Of a stretch of DNA of 64,000 nt, positions 18,950 through 48,459 are shown in pieces. The translations under genes were made by a program, and so were the position numbers. Position 1 is the stretch's first letter. Each line of letters starts with the position of its first letter. Source of the stretch: Fomes fomentarius. Its lineage: Eukaryota > Basidiomycota > Agaricomycetes > Polyporales > Polyporaceae. The stretch spans positions 2,356,001-2,420,000 of the forward strand of contig JABYQN010000003.1 in NCBI GenBank assembly GCA_022606135.1, in the 5' to 3' direction. The notes beneath the pieces were generated by a model. The model did no database searches. It worked only from the letters and a program-made list of their open reading frames with translations, and was not told where the DNA came from.

Positions 18950-19985
18950 CTAATCAGTTGCTTCTCTGTCGACACTTTGCGCGCAAACTCTGTTCGTCGA
19001 CTCTCTGCCCGTGCACTCTCCTCCACTTTCCCTAACTCTTGACTGTGCCCTCCGACACTGCTGCCAGGGGGACTTTACTGCGCTCGTGACGCAGCCCTGA
19101 GCGCTTTTTAGTAGTCGCTATCTAGTATCTCTGTACAACCTTTGGTGCTTTCGCGGCACACGGGTTTTTCAAGTATCCTCAGCCAGGCCACGCACTTGCG
19201 CCCGCCAGCTGTTGTAGCCGGGGTGGTTATCACCTTTGGACCGGAGGACAACCGTTCGGACCCTCCTTACTATACTCTTTTTGATACCTAGACTCGTATA
19301 GCTTTTCTTGGGCACAGTTGGCGACTTCTATCTGGATTGTTGGGAATATCGGCTTCCTGACCTTCTGGCTCACCTCAATAGGTGTTCCTCTCTACCAGAT
19401 CTCGCACGTGGCAAGTCAATCATCGCGTTTTTTCTCTGAACCATCGTACTGGAGCCGCCTACTACTGCCAATAGTCCTCAGCTCAGCTCCGATTCTGAAG
19501 CTGAAGTCAACGCTGAACTTGCAGAACATCATTCTACTGCATCGGCGTTTGATTGCTCGGAACAGCCCCATCTTTTTGATCTAGACGATCAGGTCGATCG
19601 TTATCACTACGTCTACGACGACGGAGAGCAGGAGTGGGACCAGTGCGACGTACAGCTCTGTCCCAATCGCTACAATCAACTCCCTCTTCCATACGAACCG
19701 ACCTTCCACTGGGCATATCCAGCAACTTGGCAGCAGGACACCGACCCACAACACGGAGTTCCTCTTCCCTATCTTCAGGAAGAAACTCACGCACAGCCCT
19801 CCTCATCTCGTCCTAATTTCTATCTCCGATCGCTCTTCGGAAACTCCCCTCCTGTCGATTCAAGTCCTCTTCCTCCAGTCTACCTTCCTCCTCCTATCGT
19901 CACTGCGCCCCCTGTCGCGCCTATCACATTCACTCTAGACTTCAAGGAGGAATATCTCGATTCTCCCCAATACCTCTTATCCATC

Positions 19986-22900
19986 ATGGGAGATATCAAA
20001 GTCGACTCTATCCCTGTCCTCTCTTCGGCGAATCAGTACAACGACTGGTCTGCCAAGATGAAGGGCTATTTCATCTTCATGGACTGTTGGAGTGTTGTCA
20101 AAGGCGCTACTCGTCCTACTGAGCAAGCTGCCAAGGACAAGTGGGATAAACTTGATGGGCAAGCTCGCGGCATGATGTACATGCGTGTCGCACCAAACTT
20201 TCACTACGTTCTGGACACTCAGATTCCTGTCTCGGGTGGACAACCCAGGGACATGACTGCTGCTGAGTCCTGGGAAGCGTTACAGAACAAGTTTGGCAAG
20301 CCTAACAGTGCCCACGTCTGGGGTTTGTTCGAGTCGCTCGTTGCTGAGCCTCGGATGAACGAACAGAAGCCCCTTCAGGATCAGATGATGCGTCTTATCA
20401 CACGCCTGCGCGAAATTAGTAGCAACGGCGTCACGCTCTCTGACAACATGCAAGCCCTTCTCTTGATGTCCAAGATCCCGGAGTCGTACCGGTCCATGGT
20501 TTCTGCGCTTATGGCGACCACAGACCTCGACAAGGTCACTCTCGACAACATCCAGTCGAAGACCTTGGCTGAGGAGTCCATGCGCAAGAACGGCCAGTCT
20601 GCGAACAAGGTCTCCCAGACCAAGCCGAAGCCCAAGGGTCCCTGCTCTCATTGCGGGAGTGGCTCTCATCATGAGTCCAACTGCTATCAGAAGTACCCTG
20701 AGAAGCGTCCCAAAGGCAAGGGCAAGGGTAAAGGGAAGGACAAAGACAAGGATAAGGACAAGGGGAAGAATAAGGACACTTCTCATAACCATGCGCACGT
20801 CACTACTGAGTCTGTATCATCTGTACTTGTAGCCGGTTCGTCTAACATCACTGCTTCTTTATATGATGAGGCTATGGCCTCGAACAGTGTGAACTGGACT
20901 GCATGGCTGATGGACTCTGGAGCCTCTCAACATATCACGGTTGATCTCTCTGAGTACATTGAGTACCAGCCCTTCGATACGCCTGTACTGTTTAACACTG
21001 CTGGACAAGGTGATAGCAGCGTCATTCAGGCACTTGGGGAAGGAACTCTGTCTGGAGAAACCTGGTTAGACGGTCAGAAGGTAGCAATTACTCTGAACCA
21101 TGTCTACTACATACCAGGCACCATTGGTCACATCTTCTCGACTGGCTCCATTGAGCGCAATGGTTACTCCCTCTTTCAAGGGGATGGGCGCATGTGCATT
21201 TTCGACAAGCTGCCTGACGGCGCTGTCAAACATGGTTCGACGATTCATATCAAGGGTCGTAAGATCCTGGAGGCGCGATACAACCCTTCGTCTAATTGTT
21301 ATTGGACAATTATTGAGCTTCACAACAGCAAGCGCGTCCATCTCAATGTCCGTAAGTTCAAGACCTGGCACCGTCGCTTTGGTCATGCGGGCAAGGTCGT
21401 TCTGCGCAACCTTCCTAAGCACACTAAGGGGGTTGATGCTGTTGATCCTGCAGATGAAGAACCGTGTGATGGATGTGCTTTTGGCAAATCCACTCGTAAC
21501 CCCTTTCCACCTTCTGAGAAGCGCGCTACTGAAGTTCTTGAGCAAGTCCATACGGACCTCGATGGACCGATGCGCACTCAGGCAATTGGAGGTTGGAAAT
21601 ACTTCGCCGGTTTCATTGATGACTATTCTGGTCTCGCTCGTGCTTACTTCCTTAAACACAAGTCTGACGCGATCCAAGCGTTCAAAGACTATAAGGCGTG
21701 GGCTGAGAACCAGACCGGCAAGAAGATCAAATCGATCCGCTCAGATCGAGGGGGGGAATACACATCAGACGAGTTCTCTACACTTCTTCGTTCGCACGGT
21801 ATCGAGCACCAGAAGACTCTACCGGGTTCGCCTCAACAGAATGGACGTGCTGAGCGCTGGAATCGTACTATTACTGAAAAGGCTCTGTCTATGCTCCACC
21901 AAGCAGGCCTTAGTCATGGTTTCTGGCAACTCGCTCTTGACGCAGCCGTTCATATCTACAATTGTCAACCTATGCGACGACACAAGTGGTCGTGCCCCAT
22001 CACTGTTTGGGATGGTACCGTTCCGGACGTCTCTTACTTCAGAGTGTTTGGGTGCAAAGCTTTTGTCCACGTGCAGAAGGCAAAGCGCGAAGGGAAACTC
22101 GACAAGAAGGCTGTCGAGATGATCTTCGTTGGGTATGAGTCTGGTTCCAAGGGGTATAGGTTTTGGAATCCAGCCAACCGCTCTATCGTCGTGTCCCGCG
22201 ATGCAACATTTGACGAAGAGTCTTTCCCTGCTCGTAACTTACCTGGCAACCGTCCTTCTACCCCGGACAACAGTCCGTTCTCAGATGATCAATCAGATGA
22301 TTCCTCGAACGATGACTCTGATTCGGTCGATCCCAATGATGCAATTCCTTTCATTCCTCCCAACCTCTTCGAACCACCACAACCTGACCCTCCAGCGGAT
22401 GCTGATCCCGCTCCTCCTGCAGAAGATCCTGCTGAGCCTCCTCCTCCTCCGCAACGTCCTCCTACGCCGCCTCCTGTCGTTCCTCCTCGTCCTCCTCACA
22501 AACGTGGTCGTCACCCTCCAGTGGGAGCTAATGAACCAAGCATTGCTCGTGACCGTCCTCGTCGCGAAAAAGCTGGTATTCCCCACAAGGACAGGACTGA
22601 TAACAACGTGTATGACGATCCTGCACGTGCTGATAATCAGATCGACAAGGATGGCAATCTGCGTGAAGCGGAGACGATACTCGCTTTTCTAGCTGCTGCT
22701 CAGTATAAAGCTGGCTTACCTCAGTCGCACAAGGAAGCCATGCGCTCACCTGATGCTGGGAAATGGCGCGAAGCTGAGAAGTCGGAGTTTGAGTCGCTTA
22801 TGGAGAATAAGACTTGGGTTCTCGTTCCTCGTCCCAAGGGCCGGCATGTTGTCTCTAACCGCTGGGTCTATGACATCAAACATGATGGGCGGTACAAGGC

Positions 22901-24259
22901 TCGTCTGGTTGCAAAGGGTTTCACTCAGGTGTGGGGAGAGGACTACCATGAGACGTTCTCTCCAGTGGCACGGTTTGAGTCTATCCGGTATTTACTCGCG
23001 CATGCAGCGCTTGAGGACTGGGACATCGAGTCAATGGATGTCAAGACCGCGTTCCTGAATGGTGATCTAGATGAGGAGATTTATATGGAACAGCCGGAAG
23101 GCTGGGTCGTTCCTAGGAAGGAAGATCACGTCTGTCTACTCAAAAAGGCTATCTATGGCCTTAAGCAGGCGTCGCGTCAGTGGAATGTGAAAATCCATCA
23201 ATCGCTTCTAGATCTGGGATTTACACGGACATATTCTGATGCTGGGATCTACGTATATCGGCGACAAGGGGGGATCACGTCACGATTGTCGTTCTTTATG
23301 TCGACGATTTACTTCTGATGGGCGATCAGTCTAGTCACATCAAACAAGTCAAGCGTTCACTTTCTAAGCAGTACAAGATGACGGACTTGGGATCTGTACA
23401 GCGCTTCCTTGGTCTTCGCATCACTCGTGATCGATCCACTCGTATGATCGACATCGACCAGGAAGAGTACATCCAGTCTGTTCTCGAGCGCTTTCAGATG
23501 GCTGACTGTAAACCCTCACGTACACCCCTTCCTGCTGGTGCTGTCTTGGCAAGTGCCGACGAACCAGCTTCCGATCAGTTCAGGCAACGCTACCAGAGTC
23601 TCATTGGCAGTCTTTTGTACGCCATGCTCGGAACGCGTCCTGATATCTCCTTCGCTGTCACACGGTTATCAAAGTACAATGCCAATCCCTCTGAAGCGCA
23701 CATGAGTTATGCGAAGTATGTCCTGCGTTACCTTCAAGGGACAAAGGCGTATCGCTTGCGCTACAAGGGAGCGTCTAATGACGGTCTGATTTCCTATTCG
23801 GATTCAGATTGGGCCGAAGACCGTGATGATCGGCATTCTACCTCTGGCTTCGTCTTCTTGATGGCAGGTGGTGCTATATCGTGGGCTTCGAGGCGTCAGC
23901 CTACCATTTCGCTCTCCTCTACTGAGGCGGAATATAAAGCGGCCTCTGATACCTGTCGTCAGTTGATCTGGCTGAGGACGTTTGGCGATGAACTTGGTGA
24001 TGACTTGACCAGGCCGACACCCATGTGTTTAGACAACCAGGGTTCGATTTTCCTGTCAGTCAATCCAGTAGTCGACCGGCGTACCAAGCACATAGAGATT
24101 CGCTACCACTTCATTCGTGAACAAGTGGAGTCTGGCTCTGTCGAGATCTTCTATGTTGCGACCGCGGATCAGTTGGCTGATTCTCTCACAAAGAACGTGC
24201 CTTATTCCATTTTGGCAAAGTTCGTTGATGAGATCGGTCTTGTTTCCGTTGCATCTTGA
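19986..24259 (+). CDS. copia-A gag-pol, one frameshift in RT
   Basis: From the first in-frame ATG, codons run to 23318 and then continue in another frame from about 23270 to 24259. Residue estimates: UBN2-type Gag 1-200; CCHC knuckle (CSHCGSGSHHESNC) near 219; Lys/Gly/Asp-rich tail; protease MDSGASQH near 308; integrase zinc region and core (HTDLDGP, RSDRGGEY, GSPQQNGRAE) 455-690; Pro-rich linker; RT (NRWVYDIKHDGRYKARLVAK, AFLNGDLDEEIYM). YVDDLLLMG lies in the second frame, followed by RNase H (ISYSDSDWAED, SSTEAEYKA). The shift occurs at a six-G run, 23268-23273; the second copy has seven G there. Upstream of the ATG the same frame stays open back to 19440 and encodes a conserved Cys/His module, but no upstream ATG is seen. 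Confidence 0.9.
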
Positions 24260-24261
24260 AC

Positions 24262-24270
24262 GAGTGGGAG
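24262..24270 (+). other. copia-A polypurine tract
   Basis: GAGTGGGAG abuts the 3' LTR and follows the RNase H stop closely. It would prime plus-strand DNA synthesis. Confidence 0.7.
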
Positions 24271-24837
24271 TGTTGAACTTCCGGACTACCGGCTGTGCTC
24301 GGACCGGAGTTGTGTACACTTGTTTATGGTCATATAATTAGATAGGCTGTGTTCCTACTTACCATTTATGGTTTTCTTTGTTCTCCTACTGTACTTTCCC
24401 ATGACCATATGGTTACTGTGCATTCCTGTGCATACCAGTGCGTTCTACACTGCACCGGACTCTTCCAGACCTTATGTCTGACTCATGCTAAGACTGTATC
24501 TGACTCATACGCCGATACGGACTCTGACTCATCGTCTTATGGCTACATGTGACTGCTTTATTCGCTGACTCATGGACTCATCCCTCATGTATATAAGCAG
24601 TCCCTTTTTCACCTCTGCTCTTCAGTCGTTCGCTCACTGACTGAAGAGTAAGTCCTTTACATACATATGCTCTACTACTTCTTACTAACTTAGTACTTGT
24701 AGTCCCTCTCTGTTGTGACTTACAGGTACTTCACTATGCAATATAGTCGTTCGCTCACTGACTGAAGATCCCTCTCTGTTGTGACTTACAGTTGTGACTT
24801 ACAGTCGCTCCTCGCCTTACAGGTTCAGAGTTCATCA
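24271..24837 (+). repeat. copia-A 3' LTR
   Basis: 567 bp, identical to the 5' LTR, and followed by the GTTCA target duplication. Confidence 0.95.
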
Positions 24838-24842
24838 GTTCA

Positions 24843-25267
24843 CCGGCGCGGGTGAACCCAATGACATCTACATGTTATCAACCTCCAAATGTTTGGCAGA
24901 TAGTGTCAGATCTGAGATATCTTGTGTGTGCTGCCGGCGCCGGTCGGTTATGCCATTCATCATCAGCATTGGTTGGGTTTGTCACGGTCACCTAGTATTG
25001 TGAGGTATAGCAGATCCTGGCTTTGCATATCTGTCACCTCCCGCTATGCAGTTCCCATTCGGTGTGGTCAATCATGTATGTACATGTCTATACAGTTGAA
25101 GCAAGCAAAATATGCTGGCGCCGGTGATCAATCCACTGGCGATGCCACCATTGGCCATTCTCCAGAGCTCATGCCAATCCATATCTCGCACAATGAGTAA
25201 TATAGCAGATAGACTATTGATTATATTATGCAACATATGTGGGCAAAACGTAGATACATATTGGTGC
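24843..25267. other. short stretch without a gene
   Basis: This lies between the copia-A insertion and the stop codon of the DUF6698-like gene. It was continuous with the sequence left of 18360 before the insertion. GCCGGCGCCGG-type and GCTGGCGCCGGTG motifs occur, but no coding signal. Confidence 0.4.
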
Positions 25268-27021
25268 TTATGCGACGTGACTGGTAGGGGCTCCAGATGG
25301 TGTGGCACTACTCCCATTGCCGGCAGGCATGTTCTCGATGCCTGCAGCCTGGGTCTGTGCTCGTCTAGTGGCCATGAGGACAGCAAGATCGTCGTCATCA
25401 TTGTTCTCAACCCAATGAGTAACAGTCCAAGCAATGAGTGGCTGGCGGTAGCGGAAGACCTGCCTGGGAAAAAGGTGCAGTGGGTCGCGACATTGAGCAA
25501 CAGGACAGAATTGAACTTACAGGTTCCACCATTCTAAAGTGGACTTAACCCAGTTGCTGTCGGGTGCAGACTCGAAAACAGCCACAATGCGCAAGAAGAA
25601 GTCCTCGAGGTTGAAGTCACCATCTTTGACGGACCACTCATCTTTCTCACTGAGAAGATGACGTGTCTGTGGCATAAGTGAGTATGATGACTTGATTATC
25701 ATGGGCAACAGAACACGTACATGGCACATAGCATATGCGATGTGTCGAGGAGACACTGAAGTCAACCTGTGAAGCTTCGCTTGGCAAGCCTGCCCTTTGT
25801 TCGCTTTTTGGGCAGGATCGATAGCGGATGATGGGGAGGTGTAGACATGACGAAGAAGCTATCGATGATGCGTGACCATCGTAAATGTGACCCTGAACAG
25901 GATGTTGTCAACTCACCCGTACCGGCAGGAGACTGTGGCAGAAGTTCCTGTCCAACTGCCCTGGGACCCATTTGGTGGGGTCTGCGAACATGAACGCGGG
26001 CCATTTCTTTGCAGTCACCGAATATGTAAGGGCTTCACCCTGATCACTCAGTGGCACTTGAAGCTTTGCAGCCACACTGTCAAGTGAGGAGTCATCACAA
26101 TGGAGCTGGTAATTGAAAGGCAGGACTCACCTGACTGGATCGAGCATGAACTCCTTGTAAACACGGATCGGACACAGTCGCTGGGCGGTGAGCATGTTGT
26201 TGAAGCTGAGCTGTGTCTTGTGCAACAACTCATGACCAACGGAAGTGATAGGTGCGTTGGGGAGGGTATTAGGATCAGCGTCCATGATGTAGTTAACTTG
26301 CCTGTCACTGAGGCTCCCAGTGTCATCTGACTGGGCCTGGCGGTGAAGGTGATCGATCTGTGATGGAAGACTGAGTCCTATGTTGGTTCAGGTGTGGGTG
26401 GCCGACGCACCATCCTGACAAAATTTTCAAGCTGGGTGCCATCTGATAACTTGTTGAGTGTGTTGCGGAACCCAGGGACCAGAGCGAGGATACTGTTATA
26501 GGCAGCAACATACCGTGCACGATAGTCTGGCTCCCTACGAATGCATATCAGATGACATAACCTGAAGACAGAGTGTGGTGAACTCACATGGCTTCGACTG
26601 CGGGGTCTTTATCAATGGCCTCAAGCTCGGCAACATCCTCATCGTCACCCGCGTCGCGTGCAGCAGCAATCGCAGCCTCCACTGCTGCATGCACCCCGGT
26701 GCGGAACACAAGTCTGATATCAAGGAATGGGTCGATAGAGCGTGGAATCCAACATGCAGCGTGCCGGTATGGTTGGAGATCATCAACTCTGAGGCCGGTA
26801 TGGTTAGTAACACGCTTTGAAGTCGTCAGTAATCATGACTCTCACTTCTTCTGCTTCTTCCGTCCATTGACATGCTCACCGAGTGTGCTTGCGATGAGCT
26901 CGCAGTGATGCTTGCGGGTGCTAGCAGTGAGTGTGGTCGGTGTAGGAGTTTGAGACATCAACTCGGCACTGTTCCGCGTTTGGACAGGTGTAGTGGGAGG
27001 ACCATGGGTAGGGCTTGACAT
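25268..27021 (-). CDS. DUF6698-like gene of basidiomycetes
   Basis: A multi-exon minus-strand gene whose exons read through as one protein. It starts MSSPTHGPPTTPVQTRNSAE with a basic end (GRKKQKK). Next come RHAACWIPRSIDPFLDIRLV, an acidic helix, then EPDYRARYVAAYNSILALV with LNKLSDGTQLENFVRM. After that come ITSVGHELLHKTQLSFNNML with LCPIRVYKEFMLDPVR, then VSPRHIAYAMCH, and finally WSVKDGDFNLEDFF with DSNWVKSTLEWWN. This order matches my memory of DUF6698, a family of unknown function abundant in Agaricomycetes. Six or seven introns of about 50-85 bp fit, one with a perfect CTAAC branch site. The stop is at 25268. It sits head to head with the Plavaka relic, so it may be carried by a transposon. 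No catalytic motif is known to me. Confidence 0.65.
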
Positions 27022-29747: not shown

Positions 29748-30341
29748 TGTCATGGCGACTTGACGCAAAGCCCCTAGACGCTGATCGGCAGCGATCGATA
29801 GGGCGAGGCGGCGAGGAGCCGAAAGGCGGAGGGGAAATGATGGAGAGAGAGAGAGAGAGAGAGAGGGACAAACTCGACGAGGACAAAGCAACGACCGGCT
29901 CTAAGGCACAAGATTGTCGACAGCTAGTCTTCAAGCAAGATGCGACAGACTAGTCCCAGTGACCAAGTAATCTATTAGTACGGAGAGTACACATACAGGT
30001 GTGGAATTCTACTCACCTAGTCCCAGTGACCAAGAGGTCGAGATGGGGACTAGGGAGGGCGCTAACTGATCTTATATACTACTGGGGAACCAAACAATGC
30101 CAAACAATGATGGGGAGTGAGTCATGGGGAGTCACAAGGGTGCGGGAGTCAGAATGAACAAGAATGAGTCATGCGGGAAACCGAAGAGAGGGATCAAAAC
30201 CGAGAAAAGGGTATAGATAAGAGGGGAAGTGGGTAGCTACCAGAGTGACTGGGGTAACAAAGGGTGACAAAGTGTGACAGAATGGTGATGAAGTGATGAA
30301 AAAGAGGCGCTGAAGGAGGCGCTGGTACTGCATCCGTGACA
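29748..30341 (-). repeat. gypsy-C 3' LTR
   Basis: On the minus strand it runs TGTCACGGATG...CGCCATGACA, 594 bp, with a purine-rich GGAGGGGGGTAA just before it (plus-strand 30342-30353). A GA microsatellite (about 29843-29867 on the plus strand) lies inside. A TATATAAGA box reads on the minus strand near 30070-30080. Confidence 0.8.
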
Positions 30342-32546
30342 TTACCCCCCTCCTATCGTCCGTCGGTCCCCGACGGATCCACATCTGGGTAGGCGTCCAG
30401 ACTCCCATTCATATAGTGTGGGGGTAGTCTCTGTGAAGTTAGTTAGAGGTTGCCACGGTAGGGATTGGAGTATTGCAGCCGAAATGCGACGGGGGGCGTT
30501 GGGGTTGCGTTTGTGGAATGCATCAATGAGTTCCTGGCAGTGGGTGAGGTTCTTTGCAGGCTCCCAGCTGTTGTTGCCTTTGCTGTAACCCTTCCAATGC
30601 ACCAGATACTGGAATTGATTCCGATACTTGCGGCTGTCCAAGATCTCCTCGACTTCGTATTCCAGCTCGCCCTCAACCTCAACTGGGTCGGGCTCAGGGG
30701 GTAGGTCGCCGTTGACTTCGTTACCTGTCCATGGAGTTAGACGGTCGACGTGAATGACATCGTGTCTGGGGAGCATCGAGTGGGGGAGTTGGAGTCGGTA
30801 AGCAAGGTCGCCCACTCGTTCTACCACCACATAAGGACCAAGTCGTCGAGGACCCAGCTTACGGCTCGCTTGGTGAATCGTTACGTCCTTGGAGTCCATC
30901 CAGACTTGGTTGCCCACTTTGAACTCATGAGGCTTCGGCTTCCCCTGTTCGAACTGTTCCTTCATGGTCTCTTTCTCCATCCGCAGCGCAGCTTTTGCCT
31001 CTCGTCGAACCTCCCGTAGTGTTTCGAGTCGTTGCTCCAGGACTGGGAATTTAGAGGGACTGCCAATGGGCACCGTGAAGTTTGGGCGGTATCTGTATAT
31101 GACCTCAAAGGGCGACATGTCGAGTGCAGAGTGTAGGCGGCTATTGAGCACAAACTCGGCAGTGGGGAGATGGTCGACCCAATCGTCCTGACGCGCGTTG
31201 GTGAAAAGACAAAGATGCTTCTCTACCTCCTGGTTAGCACATTCCATCTGACCATTGGACTGGGGGTGATATGCCGTAGTGAGTGCATGCTGAATACCCA
31301 ACTTCTCGTATAACGCCTTCATGAATCAGGCTGCAAACTGAGGTCCACGGTCGGAGACGATCTTGCTGGGGATCCCATGAAGACGGAAGATTTCACGGTA
31401 GTGGATATCAGCAACCCCTTCTGCCGTGACATTTGACGTGGTGGGCAGTACGTGAACTTGCTTGCTGTAGTGGTCGCAGTACACGATGATGGTGTCATAC
31501 CCATTAACGAGCGGGAGTCCGGTGATGAGGTCGACGCCCATCGTCTGCCAGAGCCCCTCGGGGACATCATGGGGATGTAGAGTGCCTCGTGGGTGTCGGG
31601 GTGCCTTCCGGCGTTGACAGGTCTCGCACCCTTCCACGTATTTCCGCACGAACGCAGCTTGTTGTGGCCACCAGTAAAGACGGCTGACCAGCTCTAGTGT
31701 TCCATTCCTTCCCAGGTGTCCTGAGGCTAGAGTGTCGTGGCAGAGGAAGGTGATGTGTTTGTGCAGGTCCCCTCCCAGGGGAATGTAGAGCTTTCCAGGT
31801 AGATAAGACCGTTCTCCACTTCCCATTCCAGAAGACCATTCGTCAGCTTACAAGGTCCTTTCTCCTTGGGCACCCAGAGCGCGTCGACAACTTCAGGGTC
31901 CTGAACCTGCGCATCTCGGATTTCCTGCTCCAGAGAACTAGTGTCAGTGAGCATGGCCGAGAGTGTGGCAAACCGCTCTGGCCCAAGAACGATCTGCTCC
32001 TGGTTGTCATCGGCATCTAGCACCTGGTGGGTGGGAAGGCGAGAAAGTGGATCTGCCTGCGTATTGGACTTGCCGGGTTTGTGGGTGAGATGAAAATCGA
32101 AGCAACTGAAGTACAGGGACCATCGAGCCTGATGACGGCTGAGATTCTGAGCGGTGCACCAGTACTCGAGGTTGTGGTGATCCGTGATGATCTCAAAGGG
32201 ACTTGGCAGGCTCTCCAGATAGTGTCACCAGTCCTCTAGGGCCCGTATGATACCCAGCATTTTGCGGTCGTAGATCTTGTAATTTCGCTCCGCATCTGAC
32301 ATGGATTCGGATCAGAAAGCTACGGGGTGCCAGAGTCTGTCATCCAGTTTTTGAAGCAGTACTCCTCCGGTCGCGAATCCAGAGGCATCTACCTCAACTC
32401 GTGTTGGCCGGTTAGGATCCCAGGAGATCAGCACTGGTTCGCTCGTGAAAGTGTCCTTCAGTGCCTGAAACGCGCGCTGCTGAGCAAGTCCCCATGTCCA
32501 TGGTACGTCCTTCTTGGTCAGGTCATTAAGAGGACGGGCATGGCGA
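30342..32546 (-). pseudogene. gypsy-C pol fragment: RNase H, integrase, chromodomain
   Basis: Read on the minus strand: RNase H (VEVDASGFATGGVL, YKIYDRKMLGIIRALEDW, HKPGKSNTQADPLSRLPTH), integrase zinc domain ([29 protein letters not shown]), integrase core ([38 protein letters not shown]) and a C-terminal chromodomain (EYEVEEILDSRKY, YLVHWKGYSKGNNSWEPAKN). Chromodomains steer chromovirus integration to heterochromatin. Stop codons break the frame at least after IIRALEDW (TGA before HYLES), within the VAF-SES region and after DRGPQFAA; the first looks like CGA changed to TGA. No Gag, protease or RT remains. Confidence 0.88.
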
Positions 32547-35744: not shown

Positions 35745-35746
35745 TT

Positions 35747-35820: not shown

Positions 35821-36555
35821 ATGCTGAGAAAGAACAGAACAAGCAAGACGGCAGAGAACAGGATAAGCCATCCTCTTCTACAAGGGCCAAGGAATGTAAC
35901 GATACCAGGGTTTAAACGAGAGAAGTCCCTACCATCGTTACCAAGACTAGTCATCCCAGAAGTCACAGTTACAAGACCACCGACTCCATATCCTGGACGA
36001 AAACAACTCTCACAAACAATCCCATTTGTAGAGGACGTTTCATCCACGCATTTGAGTCCAGAAACCCTTGTAAACGACTTACAGAGGACGCAGGAGTGGC
36101 AGGAATATAGGAGTTCACTAGCCACAAGCAGCTTTACTGGAGTAGTACAGGATATACTCCCACAAGTGCGAACAGTTTCTGAATCATCAGGAGGAATCGA
36201 TTCAGACAACAGAGAAACAGACCCAGACAGGATATCAACTGCAGGAATATTCTACAGGAAACAGCAAGTTCCAGTAGACACAGTTGACGCACTTCAGATT
36301 ATAACGGATAATCTTGAAGTATTAAGGAAGGAAGAAGTTACATGAGACTATCATTCAGCTTTCGACAAAGCATATCTATATCTCATACAAACTATCCAGA
36401 TTTTGGATACAGTCCCAAGAGAAGTTTATGGATCAATCCCACAGACCCAAAACTTTGCGGAATTTCTCGAGCAACAGTACAAGTACCTCAGGTCTAGGGT
36501 TATTAGTCCAGCAAACCTAATAGATCCTGATCTACATAGCAAAAATTCACAGTAA
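35821..36555 (+). pseudogene. gypsy-D upstream ORF (ORF0), one internal stop
   Basis: An ORF of about 244 codons between the primer site and Gag, starting at ATG 35821 and ending TAA 36553-36555, in the same frame as Gag. A TGA at 36343-36345 interrupts it; the codons beyond (DYHSAFDKAYLYLIQTIQIL) look just as coding. I do not recognise the protein. It is basic at the start (MLRKNRTSKTAENR), then Ser/Pro-rich with a helical end (FAEFLEQQYKYLRSRV). It may be an N-terminal extension of Gag reached by readthrough, or a separate product. Gypsy elements normally have no such ORF. Confidence 0.6.
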
Positions 36556-36606: not shown

Positions 36607-38400
36607 ATGACTGCGAAGCCATACAGTTGTAATCGTCTATATCATCTGTTCGACAACAACAAAACCAGAGATATACACTATCGAGAATCTTACAGCCGGT
36701 GGAACAACTGCACGCACGAACGTTGCCCACTAAGGTACAACACAAAAGAGATTCCGGTAACCATCTCTAAACCAGAAGGTACGGAAATACCAAGGCCATC
36801 GCAGGAATCAAGAATCGAACGATTATACAAGAAGGGACCAAGAATAGAAACTACGCCAGCGCCGGCAGGAAGTTTAGCAAGTCCAAGAATACCATCTAGT
36901 TCTCTGTCCAGTCCTCGAGTTTACACCAACGTTCAATTAAGCCCAATTGAACCGGAAGCAGGACCTAGTACAGGAATAAACCTCTCACGGACACAGAGTA
37001 CAGAGGAGTCAAAAACAGAAACAGAAAAAGCGACGGAACCAGGAATAGGAGCCAGCATCTATCTTGAACCACCGGAATATCCTGTTCCACGACAGATAGA
37101 GCCATTTTATCCTGAACCATCAGAGGAACCTATCAGACGACACGCAAAGCCCTCTTTTGAAATGTTGTATGTCAGACCACCAAGTTCAAGCACATCCATT
37201 TCTGCTGCATTCCAGCATGCGTTCCCATCAGGGAGTGGGGTACCTAGTACACCGCCACCTAATCCACCAAACCCTCCGTCAGGAGGAGGTAGTAATAGTG
37301 GACCCTCGGGACCACCAGGACCACCAAACTCACCAGGAACGCCAAATCCTACACCACCACCAGGGGGTGGCAGAGGAGGTGGAGGAGGTGGAGGAGGTGG
37401 AGGAGGAGGTGGTGGAGGAGGAGGTGGTGGTGGAGGTGGTCAACCTCCTATTCCACCAGCAGCCCCCCTTGCACCACAAAATCCTCCTAGAGGGAAAGGA
37501 AAAATCAAGGACCCAGAAGTATTCAATGGAGATAGGACAAAGACACGATCCTTTCTCAATCAGTTGTTTCTCCTTTTCACTGCAAGACTGGACGACTTTC
37601 CAAATGACCACACTAAGGTCGCAACAGCATTGTCATTCATGGAAGGAGACAACATCAACTTCTGGAAAGATACAGCCATACAGCGGGCACAAGAGGAAAT
37701 ACAGCCAGGCATTCCCAGGGGACTAGAACCTTGGAATGTCTTTGTCAAAGATTTCCAAGATTCATTTGCCCCGATAGACGAGGTGGATGATTCCATGGTC
37801 AACTTAACCACCATTCAACTCCGAGACTATGCGTCAGTTGACGAGTTCAATGCAAGGTTTATGGACCTAGCTCTTAAAGGAAACATCCTCGACCCCATAT
37901 CACAATTGGCATTGTATCGACAGGCATTACCAGATTACCTGTTAAAGAAGATTGCTCTTTCATACCCAGCCCCGTCGACCATAGCGGAATGGATGACAAG
38001 GACTAAAGAGTTGGATCACAGTTACCAACTCACAGAGAAGATTCTGTCAAACCAAAGGACAAGGAAAACAAAAACTGCAAGGACTACAAAGTCTAGGGCA
38101 ACAGTCAAAGCGGTCAATGTCGAGGAAGACACAGAAGTTCGGGTAAATCGACTCAGCGAAAAAGAACGAAAAGACCTACAAGACAAAGGTCTTTGTTTCC
38201 GCTGCCGCAAATCTGGACATATAGCCAAGGATTGTCCTAGCAGACCTGTCAAGAGGACAAAACGACCTATGGCACGACAGGTTAGGAAGATGAACAGGGA
38301 GATCCTGGAAGATATCGAAGAAGAGGAGTCGGAACAAGACATGGAACAAGAACTAGAAATCAATGCCCTAAGGGCCACGAACTTTAACTCGGATTTTTAA
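36607..38400 (+). CDS. gypsy-D Gag
   Basis: An intact 597-aa Gag, the structural protein that forms particles and binds RNA. The N terminus carries the Cys/His module (C at residue 8, H 13, W 32, C 35, C 40, then P-L-R) also found upstream of both copia Gags. A long Pro/Ser/Glu-rich region follows, then a run of more than 20 Gly coded by a GGN microsatellite (37366-37440). The Retrotrans_gag core is at about 298-480 (PEVFNGDRTKTRSFLNQLFL, LPDYLLKKIALSYPAPSTIA). A CCHC knuckle (CFRCRKSGHIAKDC) lies near 530, and an acidic tail ends the protein. The stop is in TTTTTAA, where Pol continues in the -1 frame. Confidence 0.9.
   Translation: MTAKPYSCNRLYHLFDNNKTRDIHYRESYSRWNNCTHERCPLRYNTKEIPVTISKPEGTEIPRPSQESRIERLYKKGPRIETTPAPAGSLASPRIPSSSLSSPRVYTNVQLSPIEPEAGPSTGINLSRTQSTEESKTETEKATEPGIGASIYLEPPEYPVPRQIEPFYPEPSEEPIRRHAKPSFEMLYVRPPSSSTSISAAFQHAFPSGSGVPSTPPPNPPNPPSGGGSNSGPSGPPGPPNSPGTPNPTPPPGGGRGGGGGGGGGGGGGGGGGGGGGGQPPIPPAAPLAPQNPPRGKGKIKDPEVFNGDRTKTRSFLNQLFLLFTARLDDFPNDHTKVATALSFMEGDNINFWKDTAIQRAQEEIQPGIPRGLEPWNVFVKDFQDSFAPIDEVDDSMVNLTTIQLRDYASVDEFNARFMDLALKGNILDPISQLALYRQALPDYLLKKIALSYPAPSTIAEWMTRTKELDHSYQLTEKILSNQRTRKTKTARTTKSRATVKAVNVEEDTEVRVNRLSEKERKDLQDKGLCFRCRKSGHIAKDCPSRPVKRTKRPMARQVRKMNREILEDIEEEESEQDMEQELEINALRATNFNSDF
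38394..38400 (+). promoter_or_regulatory. possible -1 frameshift site at the Gag stop
   Basis: T-TTT-TAA covers the last sense codon and the stop of Gag. Slipping back one base gives TTA and opens the frame leading to the protease (LNGQAELTPDLPTDLHVTV). Gag and Pol in gypsy elements are often joined this way. No experiment supports it here. Confidence 0.45.
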
Positions 38401-41400: not shown

Positions 41401-41979
41401 ACTGTTAGAACGGAACAAAAGCACCCAAGCACAGAAGAGAGACTGCGCAGTCTCCAAGAAGCCCGAGAGAACACCATCGCAGCACATGCGCAAGCTGCGG
41501 CGGCCATGGCTCAACGGCTTCCTGCCCTGAATATACCACTAAAACAGGGAGACCAAGTGCTTCTAGACACAAAGAACTTAAAACTTCCATATCCATCCCG
41601 GAAACTGACACCAAAACGGGTAGGACCATTTGTAATCACCAAGGTCTTAGGACCAGTCACTTTCGAACTGAAACTTCCAAAGACATGGAAAATGCATCCG
41701 GTGTTTCATGCAGGGCTTCTGACTCCATATACGACTACTAAGGAACATGGACCGGATTATATCCGACCACCACCTGACCCATCACCAGATGGCACAGAAG
41801 GGAATGAAGAATGGGAAGTCGAAGCAATTCTGAATCATCGAGTCAGACGAAAAAAGAAACAATATCTCATAGCATGGAAAGGGTGGCCGGCAGCTGAAAA
41901 TTCATGGGAATCGGAGAAGAACCTCAAACATGCGCAGACAGTGCTCAAAGCATATAAAAAGAGGCACAAGTTGACATGA
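38401..41979 (+). pseudogene. gypsy-D Pol: PR, RT, RNase H, integrase, chromodomain
   Basis: Protease LIDTGADAVIVN (about 38537-38572) is followed by a stop: one extra base near 38573 throws the frame, which resumes as KIVDQYNLPTVRLP. RT is complete (PVQDYRALNEDTIKNVYPLP, FTKLDVRAGYNN, IVIYMDDILIFS). TGA at 39974-39976, after GFGNFY, looks like CGA changed to TGA. RNase H follows (FQIECDASKVATGAVL, KHQPGKTLTQADALSRRSGH), then the H2C2 integrase zinc domain (VMGHLGIQKTYDLV, GCTICQTC). The core keeps its Asp residues (TMDYITDLP, VISDRGPQF), but the stretch between AIQVAMD and ILQKDVYKRFG is about 25 residues shorter than usual, an in-frame deletion. Last is the chromodomain (EWEVEAILNHRVRRKKKQYL, WKGWPAAENSWESEKNLKHA). 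It is dead as it stands. Confidence 0.9.
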
Positions 41980-42042
41980 GCACACCAACTCATTCCCCAT
42001 CGCTCACAGTAACCACCACAGTCCACCAGAACCTTCTCAACC

Positions 42043-43200
42043 ATGTCTTCTTTCCACACTCACACTCACTCTCGCCGTAACTACTCCAACATTCACAATG
42101 TCCCTAAAGCCCCTCGTTTCATTCTGGAGCGTTGCCCTGTCCATTATTCCCATCTCCCACGCCATACCATTTCCACTGACCCCGATGGGAGCCTGTCTGA
42201 CCGTATCGGATGGGTCCTCCTCCATAAGGACCTTGTGGGACACGTTGAGGCTCGCCTCCGTCACATCCCTCATGCCGTAGCTTCGGCTGGAGCGTACCAG
42301 GCCCTTGCCCGGGCGGCAGCTTCTTATGGGATCCTCGAGAGATACGTCCCCAGGCTAGGGGCCCCCAAGAAGGAGAAGACGGTAGCGATGCAGGCTCTCG
42401 ACGAAGCCTATCAGGCGACAATTCAGGCCACGGAACAAGTCATCGATACCTTGGCGACACCGGTTGTTGCCCGGGCTCTTGCAGATCTCATGCCTCTCAG
42501 TAACCAGCATGTCACAGAGAACCACGGATGGATTCTCAATTTCCCAGAGCGTTTCCAAGACCACCAAGGAAACACCCCAGAGCCACCATCCTGGTCGCCA
42601 GCCTCATGGGACCCATGGGGTCCTTCTCCAAACCATGCCGACAGGGAAGCGGCGTGGGGCCCTTCTCCAAAGCATGGCGACGAAGAAACAGACACGCCAG
42701 AGTCTACCCCATCCCTGTCGCCATCTTCGTTACCCCCTCTGGAGCGGCTTGACCTGCGGTCAGTTGAGGAGGTTGATGAGCAGGATACCGCTGTCGTTGC
42801 AGCAGGAGATCCCTCACCACCACCGACACCACCGCCATCCGCGACCACACCACCTGACAACGGCATCCCACACTTGCGGCGGTATCGGATGATGCACGGA
42901 CTAGGCAACACACGGTTCCTCGTCGTCACCACGGACAATGAGATCGTCTCTGTCACCGACCGAGGCTTTCTCTTCCCCTCAGAAGAGATGGAGTCAAGGT
43001 ACCGGGAGTTATGGCCAGATGCAACGCCGCTGCACGCGCGACGAGCTGCACTTATCATAGACGACATGGTAGCTAGGCACACCAACCCTCTCACATTGCG
43101 CCAAAACCTTCTCGCTCCCATCGCTACGATAATGCATTACCGGAGTGCGATTGGAGTTTCAGAGGAAGAGGAGCGGTTTTGGGACGGGTGGGGGGATTGA
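42043..43200 (+). CDS. gypsy-D third ORF (385 aa) in env position
   Basis: An intact ORF with its own ATG 64 bases after the Pol stop, ending 130 bases before the 3' LTR. It has no signal peptide or membrane segment, so it does not look like an envelope protein. The N-terminal half is a folded-looking helical region (ISTDPDGSLSDRIGWVLLHK, LVGHVEARLRHIPHAVASAG, AYQALARAAASYGILERYVP). A Pro/Ser/Asp-rich middle follows, with two copies of a WGPSP[KN]H motif. The C-terminal domain includes IPHLRRYRMMHGLGNTRFLV and YRELWPDATPLHARRAALII. I recall similar ORFs after pol in other basidiomycete gypsy elements, but know of no assigned function. It is intact although protease, RT and integrase are damaged. 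Confidence 0.75.
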   Translation: MSSFHTHTHSRRNYSNIHNVPKAPRFILERCPVHYSHLPRHTISTDPDGSLSDRIGWVLLHKDLVGHVEARLRHIPHAVASAGAYQALARAAASYGILERYVPRLGAPKKEKTVAMQALDEAYQATIQATEQVIDTLATPVVARALADLMPLSNQHVTENHGWILNFPERFQDHQGNTPEPPSWSPASWDPWGPSPNHADREAAWGPSPKHGDEETDTPESTPSLSPSSLPPLERLDLRSVEEVDEQDTAVVAAGDPSPPPTPPPSATTPPDNGIPHLRRYRMMHGLGNTRFLVVTTDNEIVSVTDRGFLFPSEEMESRYRELWPDATPLHARRAALIIDDMVARHTNPLTLRQNLLAPIATIMHYRSAIGVSEEEERFWDGWGD

Positions 43201-43313
43201 GTTACGACAGAGGAACAGATCACCGAAGCCTTACTAGCACTGACTCCCAAGTCTCTTTCATCGATGACTGACTTGTTGTAAACTGTATATCATAGGGTCG
43301 AGGACATCCCTAC

Positions 43314-43325
43314 AGAAAGGGGGAG
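43314..43325 (+). other. gypsy-D polypurine tract
   Basis: AGAAAGGGGGAG lies four bases before the 3' LTR and would prime plus-strand synthesis. Confidence 0.65.
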
Positions 43326-43329
43326 CTGA

Positions 43330-43892
43330 TGTTACAAGTTGATAAGTATGCGATATTAGTGGTTAACTATGTAACTAGAATTATGGTACTCGATTTCTGT
43401 ACTTTTACTTTTAGGATTCTCATGCCATAGGATTCTTCTGTTATATGGTCATCCAGTAGTAGTCAGGACTACGGACTTAGTCAGCCAGACTGTGCACACT
43501 ACTTCTGATTAGTCACCTTGACTGTGCAGTCTGTCATTGCAACTGTGCAGTTAGTCAGGTCGACTGCGCAGTTAGTCAGATCGACTGTGCAGCAGTAAGG
43601 ACTTACTAATACGCAGTTTACTGCTAGATTTCCGCAGTCTCATTACATGTATATAAGGGGAGGATGTCTCAGAGCAAACTCCCCAAGCTTTAGTCTCTTC
43701 GCGAATAACACAGGCTATACTCTAGCAAGTTATCACTCGCTCTCTCAGACTATACTCTAGCAAGTTATCACTCGCTCTCTCAGACTATCTTCAAGATCTC
43801 CTTCGTATAAGGATTGATCCGACTAGCAAGGTCATAAGGAACTAGGGTTACAACTCAAGTAGAATGTTTAATAGTCACGCGAGAGCGTAACA
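43330..43892 (+). repeat. gypsy-D 3' LTR
   Basis: 563 bp, TGTTACAAG...GAGCGTAACA. It aligns with the 5' LTR except for a 35-bp tandem duplication near 43720-43790 and several substitutions. Confidence 0.92.
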
Positions 43893-46490
43893 ATCCAAGC
43901 ATTCAAAGACTATAAGGTGTGGGCTGAGAACCAGACCGGCAAGAAGATCAAATCGATCCGCTCAGATCGAGGGGGGAATACACATCAGACGAGTTCTCTA
44001 CACTTCTTCGTTCACACGGTATCGAGCACCAGAAGACTCTACCGGGTTTGCCTCAACAGAATGGACGTGCTGAGCGCTGGAGCCGTACTATTACTGAAAA
44101 GGCTCTGTCTATGCTCCACCAAGCAGGCCTTAGTCATGGTTTCTGGCAACTTGCTCTTGACACAGCCATTCATATCTACAATCGTCAACCTATGTGACGA
44201 CACAAGTGGTCATGCCCCATCACTGTTTGGGATGGCACCGTTCCGGACGTCTCTTACTTCAGAGTGTTTGGGTGCAAAGCTTTTGTCCACGTGCAGAAGG
44301 CAAAGCGCGAAGGGAAACTCGACAAGAAGGCTGTCAAGATGATCTTCGTTGGGTATGAGTCTGGTTCCAAGGGGTATAGGTTTTGGAATCCAGCCAACTG
44401 CTCTATTGTCGTGTCCCGCGATGCAACATTTGACGAAGAGTCTTTCCCTGCTCGTAACTTACCTGGCAACCGTCCTTCTACCCCGGACAACAGTCTGTTC
44501 TCAGATGATCAATCAGATGATTCCTCGAATGATGACTCTGATTTGGTCGATCCCAATGACGCAATTCCTTTCATTCCTCCCAACCTCTTCAAACCACCAC
44601 AACCTGACCCTCCAGCGGATGCTGATCCCGCTCCTCCTGCAGAAGCTCCTGCTGAGCCTCCTCCTCCTCCACAACGTCCTCCTACGCCGCCTCCTGTCGT
44701 TCCTCCTCGTCCTCCTCACAAATGTGGTCGTCACCCTCCAGTGGGAGCTAATGAACCAAGCATTGCTCGTGACCGTCCTCGTCGTGAAAAAGCTGGTATT
44801 CCCCACAAGGACAGGACTGATAACAACGTGTATGACGATCCTGCACGTGCTGATAATCAGATCGACAAGGATGGCAATCTGCGTGAAGCGGAGACAATAC
44901 TCGCTTTTCTAGCTGCTGCTCAGTATAAAGCTGGCTTACCTCAGTCGCATAAGGAAGCCATGCGCTCACCTGATGCTGGGAAATGGCGTGAAGCTGAGAA
45001 GCCGGAGTTTGAGTCACTCATGGAGAATAAGACTTGGGTTCTCGTTCCTCGTCCTAAGGGCTGGCATGTTGTCTCTAACCGCTGGGTCTATGACATCAAA
45101 CATGATGGGCGGTACAAGGCTCGTCTTGTTGCAAAGGGTTTCACTCAGGTGTGGGGAGAGGACTACCATGAGACGTTCTCTCCAGTGGCGCAGTTTGAGT
45201 CTATCCAGTATTTACTTGCGCATGCAGCGCTTGAGGACTGGGACATTGAGTCAATGGATGTCAAGACCGCGTTCCTGAATGGTGATCTAGATGAGGAGAT
45301 TTATATGGAACAGCTGGAAGGCTGGGTCGTTCCTGGGAAGGAAGATCACGTCTGTCTACTCAAAAAGGCTATCTATGGTCTTAAGCAGACATCGCGTCAG
45401 TGGAATGCGAAAATCCATCAATCGCTTCTAGATCTGGGATTTACACGGACATATTCTGATGCTGGGATCACGTATATCAGCGACAAGGGGGGGATCATGT
45501 CACAATTGTCGTTCTTTATGTCGACGATCTACTTCTGATGGGTGATCAGTCTAGTCACATCAAACAAGTCAAGTGTTCGCTCTCTAAGCAGTACAAGATG
45601 ACGGACTTGGGATCTGTACAGTGCTTCCTTGGTCTTCGCATCACTCGTGATCAATCTACTCGTATGATCGACATCGACCAGGAAGAGTACATCCAGTCTG
45701 TTCTTGAGCACTTTCAGATGGCTGACTGTAAACCCTCACATACACCCCTTCCTGCTGGTGCTGTCTTGGCAAGTGCCGACGAACCAGCTTCCGATCAGTT
45801 CAGGCAACGCTACCAGAGTCTCATTGGCAGTCTTTTGTATGCCATGCTCGGAACGTGTCCTGATATCTCCTTCGCTGTCACACAGTTATCAAAGTACAAT
45901 GCCAATCCCTCTGAAGTGCACATGAGTTATGTGAAGTATGTCCTGTGTTACCTTCAAGGGACAAAGGTGTATTGCTTGCACTACAAGGGAGCATCTAATG
46001 ACGGTCTGATCTCCTATTCGGATTCAGATTGGGCAGAAGACCATGATGATCGGCATTCTACCTCTGGCTTCGTCTTCTTGATGGCAGGTGGTGCTATATC
46101 GTGGGCTTCGAGGCGTCAGCCTACCATTTCACTCTCCTCTACTGAGGCGGAATATAAAGCGGCCTCTGATACCTGTCGTCAGTTGATCTGGCTGAGGACG
46201 TTTGGCGATGAACTTGGTGATGACTTGACCAGGCCAACACCCATGTGTCTAGACAACCAGGGTTCGATTTTCCTGTCAGTCAATCCAGTAGTCTACCGGT
46301 GTACCAAGCACATAGAGATTCGCTACCACTTCATTCGTGAACACGTGGAGTCTGGCTCTGTCGAGATCTTCTATGTTGCGACTGCGGATCAGTTGGCTGA
46401 TTCTCTCACAAAGAACGTGCCTTATTCCATTTTGGCAAAGTTCGTTGATGAGATCAGTCTTGTTTCCATTGCATCTTGAACAAGTGGGAG
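43893..46490 (+). pseudogene. copia-A copy 2, integrase to RNase H
   Basis: The segment resumes copia-A at the equivalent of 21671 (integrase), 300 bases beyond where the 5' piece ended. It keeps the integrase end (the intact element's GSPQQNGRAE reads LPQQNGRAE here), the Pro-rich linker, RT and RNase H. CGA-to-TGA at about 44193 makes a stop. Next to the RT active site one T is missing between 45469 and 45470 (GGGATC-ACGTA), so YVDDLLLMG again lies in a different frame. The G run at 45487-45493 has seven G. RNase H reads to 46479. Most differences from copia-A are CpG to TpG or CpA. Confidence 0.9.
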
Positions 46491-46840
46491 TGTTGAACTT
46501 CCGGACTACCAGCTGTGCTCGGACCGGAGTTGTGTACACTTGTTTATGGTTATATGATTAGATAGGCTGTGTTCCTACTTACCATTTATGGTTTTCTTTG
46601 TTCTCCTACAGTACTTTCCCATGACCATATGGTTACTCTGCATTCCTGTGCATACCAGTGTGTTCTACACTGCACCGGACTCTTCTAGACCTTATGTCTG
46701 ACTCATGCTATGACTGTATCTGACTCATACGCCGATATGGACTCTGACTCATTGTCTTATGGCTACATGTGACTGCTTTATCTGCTGACTCATGGACTCA
46801 TCCCTCATGTATATAAGCAGTCCCTTCTTCACCTCTGCTC
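46491..46840 (+). repeat. copia-A copy 2 3' LTR, truncated
   Basis: 350 bp of LTR from TGTTGAACTT, ending shortly after the TATATAA box at the copia-B boundary. The remaining 3' portion is not found beyond copia-B (51855 on), so it was deleted rather than simply interrupted. Confidence 0.9.
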
Positions 46841-47434
46841 TGTGGGAATTACTATGGACTATGGACTATAGATGCGCATTAGGCGCTTATGGGCACAGCA
46901 TTTTCTTTGGCTATGTTTCCTTCTTACCCAATATGGTACACTCAATACTGTACTTATATGGTTATTGGTTCTCACTTCGTCCAATCCATTCCGGTGCATT
47001 CTACACTGCTCCGGATAGTTCTAGATAGTCTTGGATGCATCCATGTGACCATCTCTAGTACTTTCTACACCTTTCTCTTTGTTCTGTCTGAGTCATCGCT
47101 CCACCTTTCTTACTCAGCGTTGGTTCACTCTGACTCAGACATATCACATGCTCTCCTTTCTGTCGCTTACTCATGCAGCTCCTGTACAGTATATAAGGAG
47201 GGACTTTCAGGGCTTTGTCTCCTCAGTCTTTGCTCACTGACTGAGGAGTAAGTACTTTGTTCTACTATATGCTCTATGCTCTTACTTACTTAGTACCTAT
47301 AGCTCGTCTGTCTGCGTGTCTACTAAGTACTTATCCCTTTATGATTATAGTCTTTGCTCACTGACTGAGGACTTGTCTGTCTGCATGTTTACTAGTCGTT
47401 GCAACTCTTGCCTTCACAGGTTCAGACTTCATCA
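46841..47434 (+). repeat. copia-B LTR, forward
   Basis: It runs TGTGGGAATTAC...CTTCATCA. The inverted copy starts TGTTGGAATTAC, so one base differs. TATATAAGG is near 47190. A twice-used GTCTTTGCTCACTGACTGAGGA motif parallels the copia-A leader, which shows the two families are related. Confidence 0.9.
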
Positions 47435-47452
47435 GGTTATGAGCCCTGAGCT
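47435..47452 (+). other. copia-B primer binding site (internal tRNA-iMet)
   Basis: GGTTATGAGCCCTGAGCT follows the LTR. The first 14 bases equal the copia-A site and complement an initiator tRNA-Met anticodon arm. Confidence 0.7.
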
Positions 47453-48459
47453 CTGCCGTTGTTAGTCATCACTTTGCGCGCGCCCCATCCTCTCGACGAC
47501 TTCTACCCTCATGCTCTTCCTCCATCTTTCCCTAACTCTTGACTGTGCCCGCCGACACTGCTGCCAGGGGGACATTCCTGCGCTCGTGACGCAGCCCTGA
47601 GCGCTTTTGTAGTCAGCTATCTACTAGTATCTTTGTACAACCTTTGGTGCTTTTGCGGCACACAGGTTTTCAGGTATCCCTCAGCCAGGCCACGCACTTG
47701 CGCCCGCCAGCTGTTGTATCCGGGGTGCTTAACACCTTAGGACCGGAGGACAACCGTTTGGACCCTCCTTACGATACTCTTTTGATACCTAGCTTAGAAT
47801 AGTTTTCTTGGGCACAGTTGGCAACTTCTACCCTTAGCATCGGCATACCCGGCTTGCTGGTGTTCAAGGTTCACCTCAACAGGTGTCCACATCTACCGTT
47901 GCCTTTGCACGAGGCTTATCTCCCAAATCATCGAGCTTCCTGAACCTTTCGCATCGACACAGTGGCTTCGTCGAGCGACGAATTCGTCTGTAGTCACTCT
48001 TTTCACTGGTACGACACCAGCGAACAGAAGGACTGCTTCTGGGACGAAGAAGAGCATGACTGGTATAACTGCAATAGACAACCGTGTCCTAACCGGGAGT
48101 CTGAAGTAGTACAACCAGACAACTGCGACATTCCAACAGATTATATCACTCCTGCTCCTGGACAAACTTGTCTACCAGACACATCAGACTCGACTTCCTC
48201 AGCATCATCTTCTTTGTCGTCTCAAGGCGAAGTTGAACATATACTTGCCCCACCATCACCTACTGTCGACGCTCCTCAATCCCCTCACTCTACCTCTTCT
48301 TCTTCAGTCTCTCCTATCGCATCTGTCTCTCCTCTCGCTCTAGACACCCCTCTCCCACCATCTCAATCTCTTTCTCCATTAACATCTTCTCTACCTGCCC
48401 TCAATCTTATCGTCAACCCACCTCAGCACGACTCAACCGACTTCATCTATTCATTCACC

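What the first reader, a model, noticed from the sequence alone, without database searches (positions are those of the whole stretch)
19554..48096. Same Cys/His module at the Gag N terminus of two copia families and one gypsy family
Three elements share C-x4-H-[LW]-[FY]-D ... W-x2-C-x4-C-P-x-R: copia-A at 19554-19670 (C-SEQP-H ... W-DQ-C-DVQL-C-PNR), gypsy-D at 36628-36735 (C-NRLY-H ... W-NN-C-THER-C-PLR) and copia-B at 47989-48096 (C-SHSF-H ... W-YN-C-NRQP-C-PNR). Spacing C-x4-H and W-x2-C-x4-C is exact in all three; only the middle differs (18, 18 and 21 residues). Ty1/copia and Ty3/gypsy Gags are not otherwise alike, so a shared small zinc-finger-like module suggests exchange or capture between superfamilies, or a common host partner. 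I know of no description of it.
Basis: seen in the sequence. Interest (0 to 1): 0.85.

Follow-up and report, generated by a model that had tools for sequence, protein, structure and literature searches.

The report
Shared Cys/His Gag module, retrotransposon superfamilies
Two very different kinds of retrotransposon in a fungus carry the same small, undescribed, possibly metal-binding protein piece in front of their capsid protein, in several families apparently made from an unusual start codon, which suggests that the piece has moved between unrelated elements and does something useful for them.

Summary
In detail: the three segments lie at the stated coordinates with exact C-x4-H and W-x2-C-x4-C-P-x-R spacing. 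They are homologous: a profile of copia modules alone finds gypsy-D at E about 1e-11 scaled to the genome, a gypsy-only profile finds copia-B at 1e-7 and copia-A at 1e-4; the best shuffled frame scores 10 bits. Three more gypsy Gag leaders of this genome carry it, and 8 of 108 foreign proteins found with copia-A, one from Trametes sanguinea. Pfam, PDB and fold searches gave no convincing match. New here: in copia-A, copia-B and gypsy-G the module lies upstream of the first in-frame AUG, in a translated-looking, AUG-poor frame; homologous N termini and copy comparison point to CUG (copia-A, gypsy-G) and GUG (copia-B) starts. gypsy-D has a weak-context AUG. Best reading: a minor, N-terminally extended Gag, organised like murine leukaemia virus glycoGag, carrying a module exchanged between superfamilies. 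Metal binding and any host partner are untested.

The parts
18365..18932 (+). copia-A 5' LTR (3' copy 24271-24838)
   Evidence: 568 of 568 identical positions; the last few bases may belong to the primer site
18940..19985 (+). copia-A leader with no ATG in any frame, between primer-site-like sequence and Gag AUG
   Evidence: 0 observed, 8.7 expected in dinucleotide shuffles, 0 of 2000 as low; an ATG with 5 codons lies just before, at 18936
19449..19451 (+). CTG, proposed start codon of extended copia-A Gag
   Evidence: kept in 37 of 38 copies; aligns with Met of P0010 (MEPTTA) and first Leu of P0013 (LEPTTA)
19554..19670 (+). Cys/His module of copia-A
   Evidence: (C, H, C, C, P, R kept in 37 of 37 gap-free copies)
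19986..23318 (+). copia-A Gag-Pol frame from its first AUG (Retrotran_gag_2, integrase, first part of RT)
36607..36609 (+). gypsy-D AUG in front of the module, weak context (T at -3, A at +4)
   Evidence: present in 14 of 15 copies, the other not aligned there
36628..36735 (+). Cys/His module of gypsy-D, a chromodomain gypsy element flanked by copia-A sequence (nested)
37162..37164 (+). next ATG in any frame after 36607 in this gypsy-D copy, in frame with Gag and upstream of the capsid (about 37501)
   Evidence: not at the same place in two other copies
47962..47964 (+). GTG, proposed start codon of extended copia-B Gag
   Evidence: 11 of 11 copies, A at -3 and G at +4; V-A-S-S aligns with M-A-S-S of foreign homologues
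47989..48096 (+). Cys/His module of copia-B
48460..51078 (+). copia-B Gag-Pol frame from its first in-frame AUG

Best explanation
The segments are copies of one small domain (about 40 residues; C-x4-H-x(16-22)-[WY]-x2-C-x4-C-P-x-R, spacing range from the sequences printed) that sits on an N-terminal extension of Gag and has been passed between Ty1/copia and Ty3/gypsy elements. In copia-A, copia-B and gypsy-G the extension is made by initiation at a near-cognate codon (CUG, GUG, CUG) while most ribosomes scan on through an AUG-poor stretch to the ordinary Gag AUG; gypsy-D may get a similar effect from a weak-context AUG. A minor share of Gag would thus carry the module into the particle. The module probably folds as a small beta sheet and binds a metal through C, H, C, C. 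Because it works on two unrelated capsids, I infer that it acts on something outside the capsid lattice, most likely a shared host factor or the element RNA. Shown: homology, placement, coding constraint on the copia-A leader, AUG depletion. Inferred: start codons, isoform ratio, metal, target.
For: Homology. Foreign copias. Coding leader: variable sites by codon position, minor allele in at least 3 of 38 copies: 1/2/8 before the module, 2/5/18 in the linker, 11/9/38 in gag, but 11/2/4 in the 5' UTR; copia-B linker 14/9/26 (at least 2 of 11 copies plus reference). AUG depletion: (copia-A 0 vs 8.7; copia-B 2 vs 8.4; gypsy-G 0 vs 5.5) and, keeping the protein, (synonymous shuffle: copia-A 0 vs 5.9, P 0.00025; gypsy-G 0 vs 3.2, P 0.02; gypsy-D 0 vs 2.1, P 0.04). 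Start codons; among 4 gypsy-G copies the frame just upstream of the CTG runs in three different registers while CCACCCTGGCC is kept in 4 of 4, the accCUGg context reported for MLV (passage of PMC5778647). Transfer. Fold: (mean pLDDT 80, residues 11-40 about 90).
Against: Codon-position bias inside the module itself is weak in copia-A (4/4/7) and absent in copia-B (6/4/3); 5 of 11 copia-B copies have lost the final R. AUG depletion of the copia-B extension is not significant under synonymous shuffle (1 vs 2.6, P 0.17); of two further gypsy-D copies checked, in L054 the next ATG is in frame but elsewhere and in L060 it is out of frame. gypsy-E and gypsy-F show upstream AUGs in another frame and decayed copies, so their start is unknown. 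Queries with the gypsy-E, F and G modules found only their own families (3, 2 and 6 rows), and the copia-only profile reaches gypsy-E only at E 11 and gypsy-F at 0.1. A protein-database search with the gypsy-D leader found no relative. Some gypsy-G copies are decayed, so their upstream indels could be neutral. Single origin of the gypsy modules is not rejected (p-AU 0.059). The MLV paper itself saw low ribosome coverage at the CUG. No structure match. No transcript or protein data.
Confidence: 0.6

Rival explanations
1. The module was present in a common ancestor of the Gags and has been kept in some families and lost in others; no exchange took place.
For: Gypsy modules as one clade is not rejected (p-AU 0.059); losses are easy.
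Against: Capsid relatives of gypsy-E (n108, 33%, E 1e-19) and of gypsy-D (n112, 30%, E 9e-15) show no recognisable module; foreign copia P0016 matches gypsy-D (E 1e-7) better than copia-A (1e-5); the tree joins P0016 and gypsy-D at 88/91, not a strongly supported branch. By established knowledge copia and gypsy split very anciently, yet modules are still 24% (copia-B to gypsy-D), 33% (copia-A to gypsy-D) and 40% (P0016 to gypsy-D) identical.
Confidence: 0.18
2. The module frame is reached through a spliced upstream exon carrying an AUG, not by a non-AUG start.
For: A GTAAGT donor-like site follows the TATA-like box in the copia-A LTR (about 18742, read); three Trametes sanguinea models (P0012, P0014, P0017) have other N-terminal sequence in front of the Gag part.
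Against: copia-A has no ATG from 18940 to its Gag AUG, and none between the TATA-like box (18684) and the donor-like site (list); homologous N termini begin at the CTG and next to the GTG; in gypsy-G the frame upstream of the CTG is not kept.
Confidence: 0.15
3. The extension serves the element itself (RNA packaging, nucleic-acid chaperone, assembly control) rather than a host partner. This concerns function only and is compatible with the rest.
For: copia-A and copia-B leaders are also unusually similar as RNA next to the extension (82.5% over 475 columns).
Against: It is portable between unrelated capsids; a zinc knuckle is already present further along in gypsy-D (zf-CCHC), and a C-x2-C-x4-H-x4-C string can be read in both copias.
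Confidence: 0.35
4. Chance or convergent Cys/His spacing in composition-biased leaders.
For: Short motif; one gypsy-D query hit lies outside the elements (C2:967243, E 0.05).
Against: Cross-profile test with shuffled control.
Confidence: 0.02

Closest known systems
Murine leukaemia virus glycoGag (CUG-initiated N-terminal extension of Gag)
   Same: Extension in frame with and upstream of the Gag AUG; near-cognate CUG in accCUGg context (gypsy-G; MLV context from passages of PMC5778647); minor isoform expected
   Different: Carries a Cys/His module; found in retrotransposons of two superfamilies; signal peptide and membrane topology not examined; sequences not compared
CCHC zinc knuckle of Gag nucleocapsid (Pfam PF00098)
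   Same: Small Cys/His motif in Gag
   Different: Other spacing (C-x4-H ... C-x4-C), other end of Gag; gypsy-D has both
Ty1/copia Gag, Retrotran_gag_2 (PF14223), and chromodomain Ty3/gypsy elements (chromoviruses)
   Same: copia-A and copia-B have the copia domains; gypsy-D has RT, RNase H, integrase and chromodomain
   Different: The N-terminal module is not among the domains that Pfam finds

Membership tests
One homologous module family (this report) | C-x4-H and [WY]-x2-C-x4-C-P-x-R in order | tested here: met
   copia-A, copia-B, gypsy-D, gypsy-F (L070) and gypsy-G; gypsy-E only with a stop inside the module in L069; gypsy-F copy L085 has CLNR; 6 of 108 foreign proteins by pattern, 8 of 108 by profile
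One homologous module family (this report) | Cross-superfamily profile match above shuffled background | tested here: met
   gypsy-D and gypsy-G with the copia-only profile, copia-A and copia-B with the gypsy-only profile; gypsy-F only E 0.1 and gypsy-E E 11
MLV glycoGag-like extended Gag | In-frame extension upstream of the Gag AUG without AUG | tested here: met
   copia-A, copia-B, gypsy-G; not gypsy-D, which has an AUG; open for gypsy-E and gypsy-F
MLV glycoGag-like extended Gag | Initiation at the near-cognate codon shown by translation data | not testable with these tools
   no Ribo-seq or protein data
MLV glycoGag-like extended Gag | Signal peptide / membrane topology of the extension | not tested
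   no predictor run
zf-CCHC (PF00098) | Profile match in the module | tested here: not met
   Pfam scans of module segments gave no zinc-finger family, only stray hits (best E 0.029)
Known protein fold in the PDB | Structural match of the predicted model | tested here: inconclusive
Metal-binding domain | Metal bound by C, H, C, C | not testable with these tools
   only the conservation of the residues was seen

The most novel reading that the evidence does not exclude
A portable accessory Gag domain has moved more than once between Ty1/copia and Ty3/gypsy retrotransposons of polypore-type fungi and is delivered in both as a minor, leaky-scanning or non-AUG initiated Gag isoform that binds a common host factor (for example of silencing, heterochromatin or transport): a glycoGag-like accessory function in intracellular retrotransposons.
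Probability: 0.3. Interest if true: 0.87.

Novelty: new variant of a known kind. Interest (0 to 1): 0.72.

Why it matters
Gag parts are thought to evolve with their own capsid lineage. A domain shared by two superfamilies says that Gag extensions can be exchanged and gives a handle on a possible accessory function in retrotransposons. It can be missed by annotation that waits for an AUG: among the close foreign relatives, P0011 and P0018 (the latter marked partial) begin at the downstream Gag AUG. It makes a specific, testable claim about non-AUG translation in mobile elements of fungi.

Tried and rejected

A host protein carrying the module: not found, but only single-sequence searches with pre-filtered candidates were possible in this genome.

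Full report
What is there. The window lies in a 41 Mb genome of 24 contigs. The closest named copia relatives come from Trametes species, so it is probably a polypore fungus (inference). The three segments are present as described. copia-A (LTRs identical over 568 positions) and copia-B carry the Ty1/copia domains; gypsy-D carries RT, RNase H, integrase and a chromodomain and is flanked by copia-A sequence, so it is nested.

Where the module sits. In copia-A and copia-B the first in-frame AUG (19986, 48460) is downstream of the module. In gypsy-D an AUG at 36607 precedes it. In gypsy-G (L114) the module again lies upstream of the first AUG of its open frame.

How far it reaches in this genome. 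Six-frame searches with single modules gave 68 copia-A rows (66 places, two being split), 11 copia-B rows and 18 gypsy-D rows (17 places) (lower bounds, as candidates are pre-filtered). All 25 other-family rows of the copia-A query were copia-B (11) or gypsy-D (14). The copia-B query also led to two more gypsy-type Gag leaders, gypsy-E and gypsy-F, with further copies. A profile of five families found a sixth, gypsy-G (E 0.0017 in the loci held), among 8 gypsy leaders fetched; its own query gave 6 rows. Queries with the gypsy-E, F and G modules found only their own families. The only hit outside elements was C2:967243 (E 0.05; read). Two foreign copia modules used as queries found only copia-A and gypsy-D (78 and 66 rows). 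Without a recognisable module: 19 of 19 further copia leaders fetched and 7 of the 8 gypsy leaders. These are picks from the RT lists, not a census, and some fetched copia stretches held no gag (part of whose output was cut).

Homology, not chance. A profile from 10 copia modules (2 here, 8 foreign), with E-values scaled to 1.5 million frames, scores gypsy-D at 44.7 bits in the window and up to 48.6 in other copies (about 6e-10 to 4e-11), gypsy-G at 29-32 bits (5e-6 to 5e-5), gypsy-F at 18 bits (E 0.1) and gypsy-E at 12 bits (E 11, frame cut by a stop). A profile from the 4 gypsy modules scores copia-B at 38 bits (about 1e-7) and copia-A in the window at 28 bits (1e-4). The best shuffled frames have 10.3 and 10.2 bits, the best unrelated real frames 9.9 and 10.5. 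gypsy-E and gypsy-F are therefore members mainly by pattern, place and the gypsy-side link.

Other fungi. Of 108 proteins found with copia-A, 8 carry the module by profile (E 8e-12 to 2e-6) and 6 by strict pattern, all within the first 40 residues: P0013 from Trametes sanguinea, seven from unnamed contigs. The other 100 score no better than E 0.1; that includes the plant copias, and close relatives whose predicted proteins begin at or after the Gag AUG or have other N termini.

Is the extension translated? In 38 copia-A copies, variable sites (minor allele at least 3) by codon position are 1/2/8 before the module, 4/4/7 in it, 2/5/18 in the linker, 11/9/38 in gag and 11/2/4 in the 5' UTR; 31 of 37 gap-free copies keep the leader frame open, and 37 of 37 keep C, H, C, C, P and R. 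In 11 copia-B copies (minor allele at least 2) the linker is 14/9/26, gag 13/19/50, the UTR 17/8/10, but the module 6/4/3; 11 of 11 keep C, H, C, C and P, 5 of 11 have lost the last R and one has a stop. In 15 gypsy-D copies the module is 5/4/9.

Start codon. copia-A has no ATG between the primer-site-like sequence and the Gag AUG (0 against 8.7), copia-B 2 against 8.4, gypsy-G 0 against 5.5; of 34 copia-A copies counted, 19 have none, 9 one and 6 two to seven. Short ATG frames do lie in or before the primer site. Shuffling synonymous codons only, copia-A still has 0 against 5.9 (P 0.00025), gypsy-G 0 against 3.2 (0.02), gypsy-D 0 against 2.1 (0.04), copia-B 1 against 2.6 (0.17). The N termini of relatives align with a CTG in copia-A and lie at a GTG in copia-B; the codons are kept in 37 of 38 and 11 of 11 copies. 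An AT[C/T] in good context also precedes the copia-A CTG in 38 of 38 copies, so the exact codon is open. Relatives' first Met may itself stand for GTG or TTG, because bacterial gene callers write these as M (recalled). gypsy-G keeps CCACCCTGGCC in 4 of 4 copies while the frame just upstream varies. The MLV glycoGag CUG is reported in the context accCUGg, although that paper found low ribosome coverage at it (passages, PMC5778647). In gypsy-D the next ATG in any frame is 555 bases downstream, in frame and before the capsid; in L054 the next is also in frame but nearer, in L060 it is out of frame.

Origin. Gag comparisons place n108 next to gypsy-E and n112 next to gypsy-D, both without a recognisable module. 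P0016, a foreign copia, matches gypsy-D best in this genome, and the small tree pairs them at 88/91, though no branch is strongly supported, long branches are present and one gypsy clade is not rejected (p-AU 0.059). Module-bearing gypsies lie near copia-A/B more often than other RT elements do (within 50 kb: gypsy-D 12 of 17, E to G 7 of 10, other RVT_1 21 of 56, random 13%), so they share neighbourhoods in which exchange could happen; nesting inflates this count, and the random figure used guessed lengths for three small contigs.

Fold. AlphaFold with 11 sequences gives mean pLDDT 80 and three strands; with 3 sequences pLDDT 72 and four strands. No solved structure matches convincingly.

Conclusion. 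A real, homologous Gag module, undescribed in the searches named, shared by both superfamilies and most likely carried by a non-AUG or leaky-scanning extended Gag. Exchange is likely; metal binding and partner are inferred.

Noticed in passing
18933-19396 and 47436-47897: The 5' untranslated leaders of copia-A and copia-B are more alike (82.5%; blocks of 94-96%) than their coding stretches (about 70%), the likeness ending near the start of the extension: possible structured RNA or recent exchange.
   Followed up: partly
23240-23318: The RT frame of this copia-A copy is broken at one site; in the genome, copies with and without such a break occur. Mutation, assembly error and frameshifting are all possible.
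   Followed up: partly
35821-36345: gypsy-D has a 174-codon AUG frame upstream of Gag, without Pfam match.
   Followed up: no
30345-31325: Minus-strand integrase end with chromodomain: a further chromodomain gypsy element.
   Followed up: no
12833-14011: GMC oxidoreductase gene piece, an ordinary fungal gene beside the elements.
   Followed up: no
18929-18945: Primer-site-like sequence resembling the anticodon arm of initiator tRNA-Met (half-tRNA priming; recalled, not tested).
   Followed up: no
19671-19751: A second motif, W-[AG] ... W-Q-[EQ], follows the module in copia-A and several foreign relatives; not seen in gypsy-D.
   Followed up: partly
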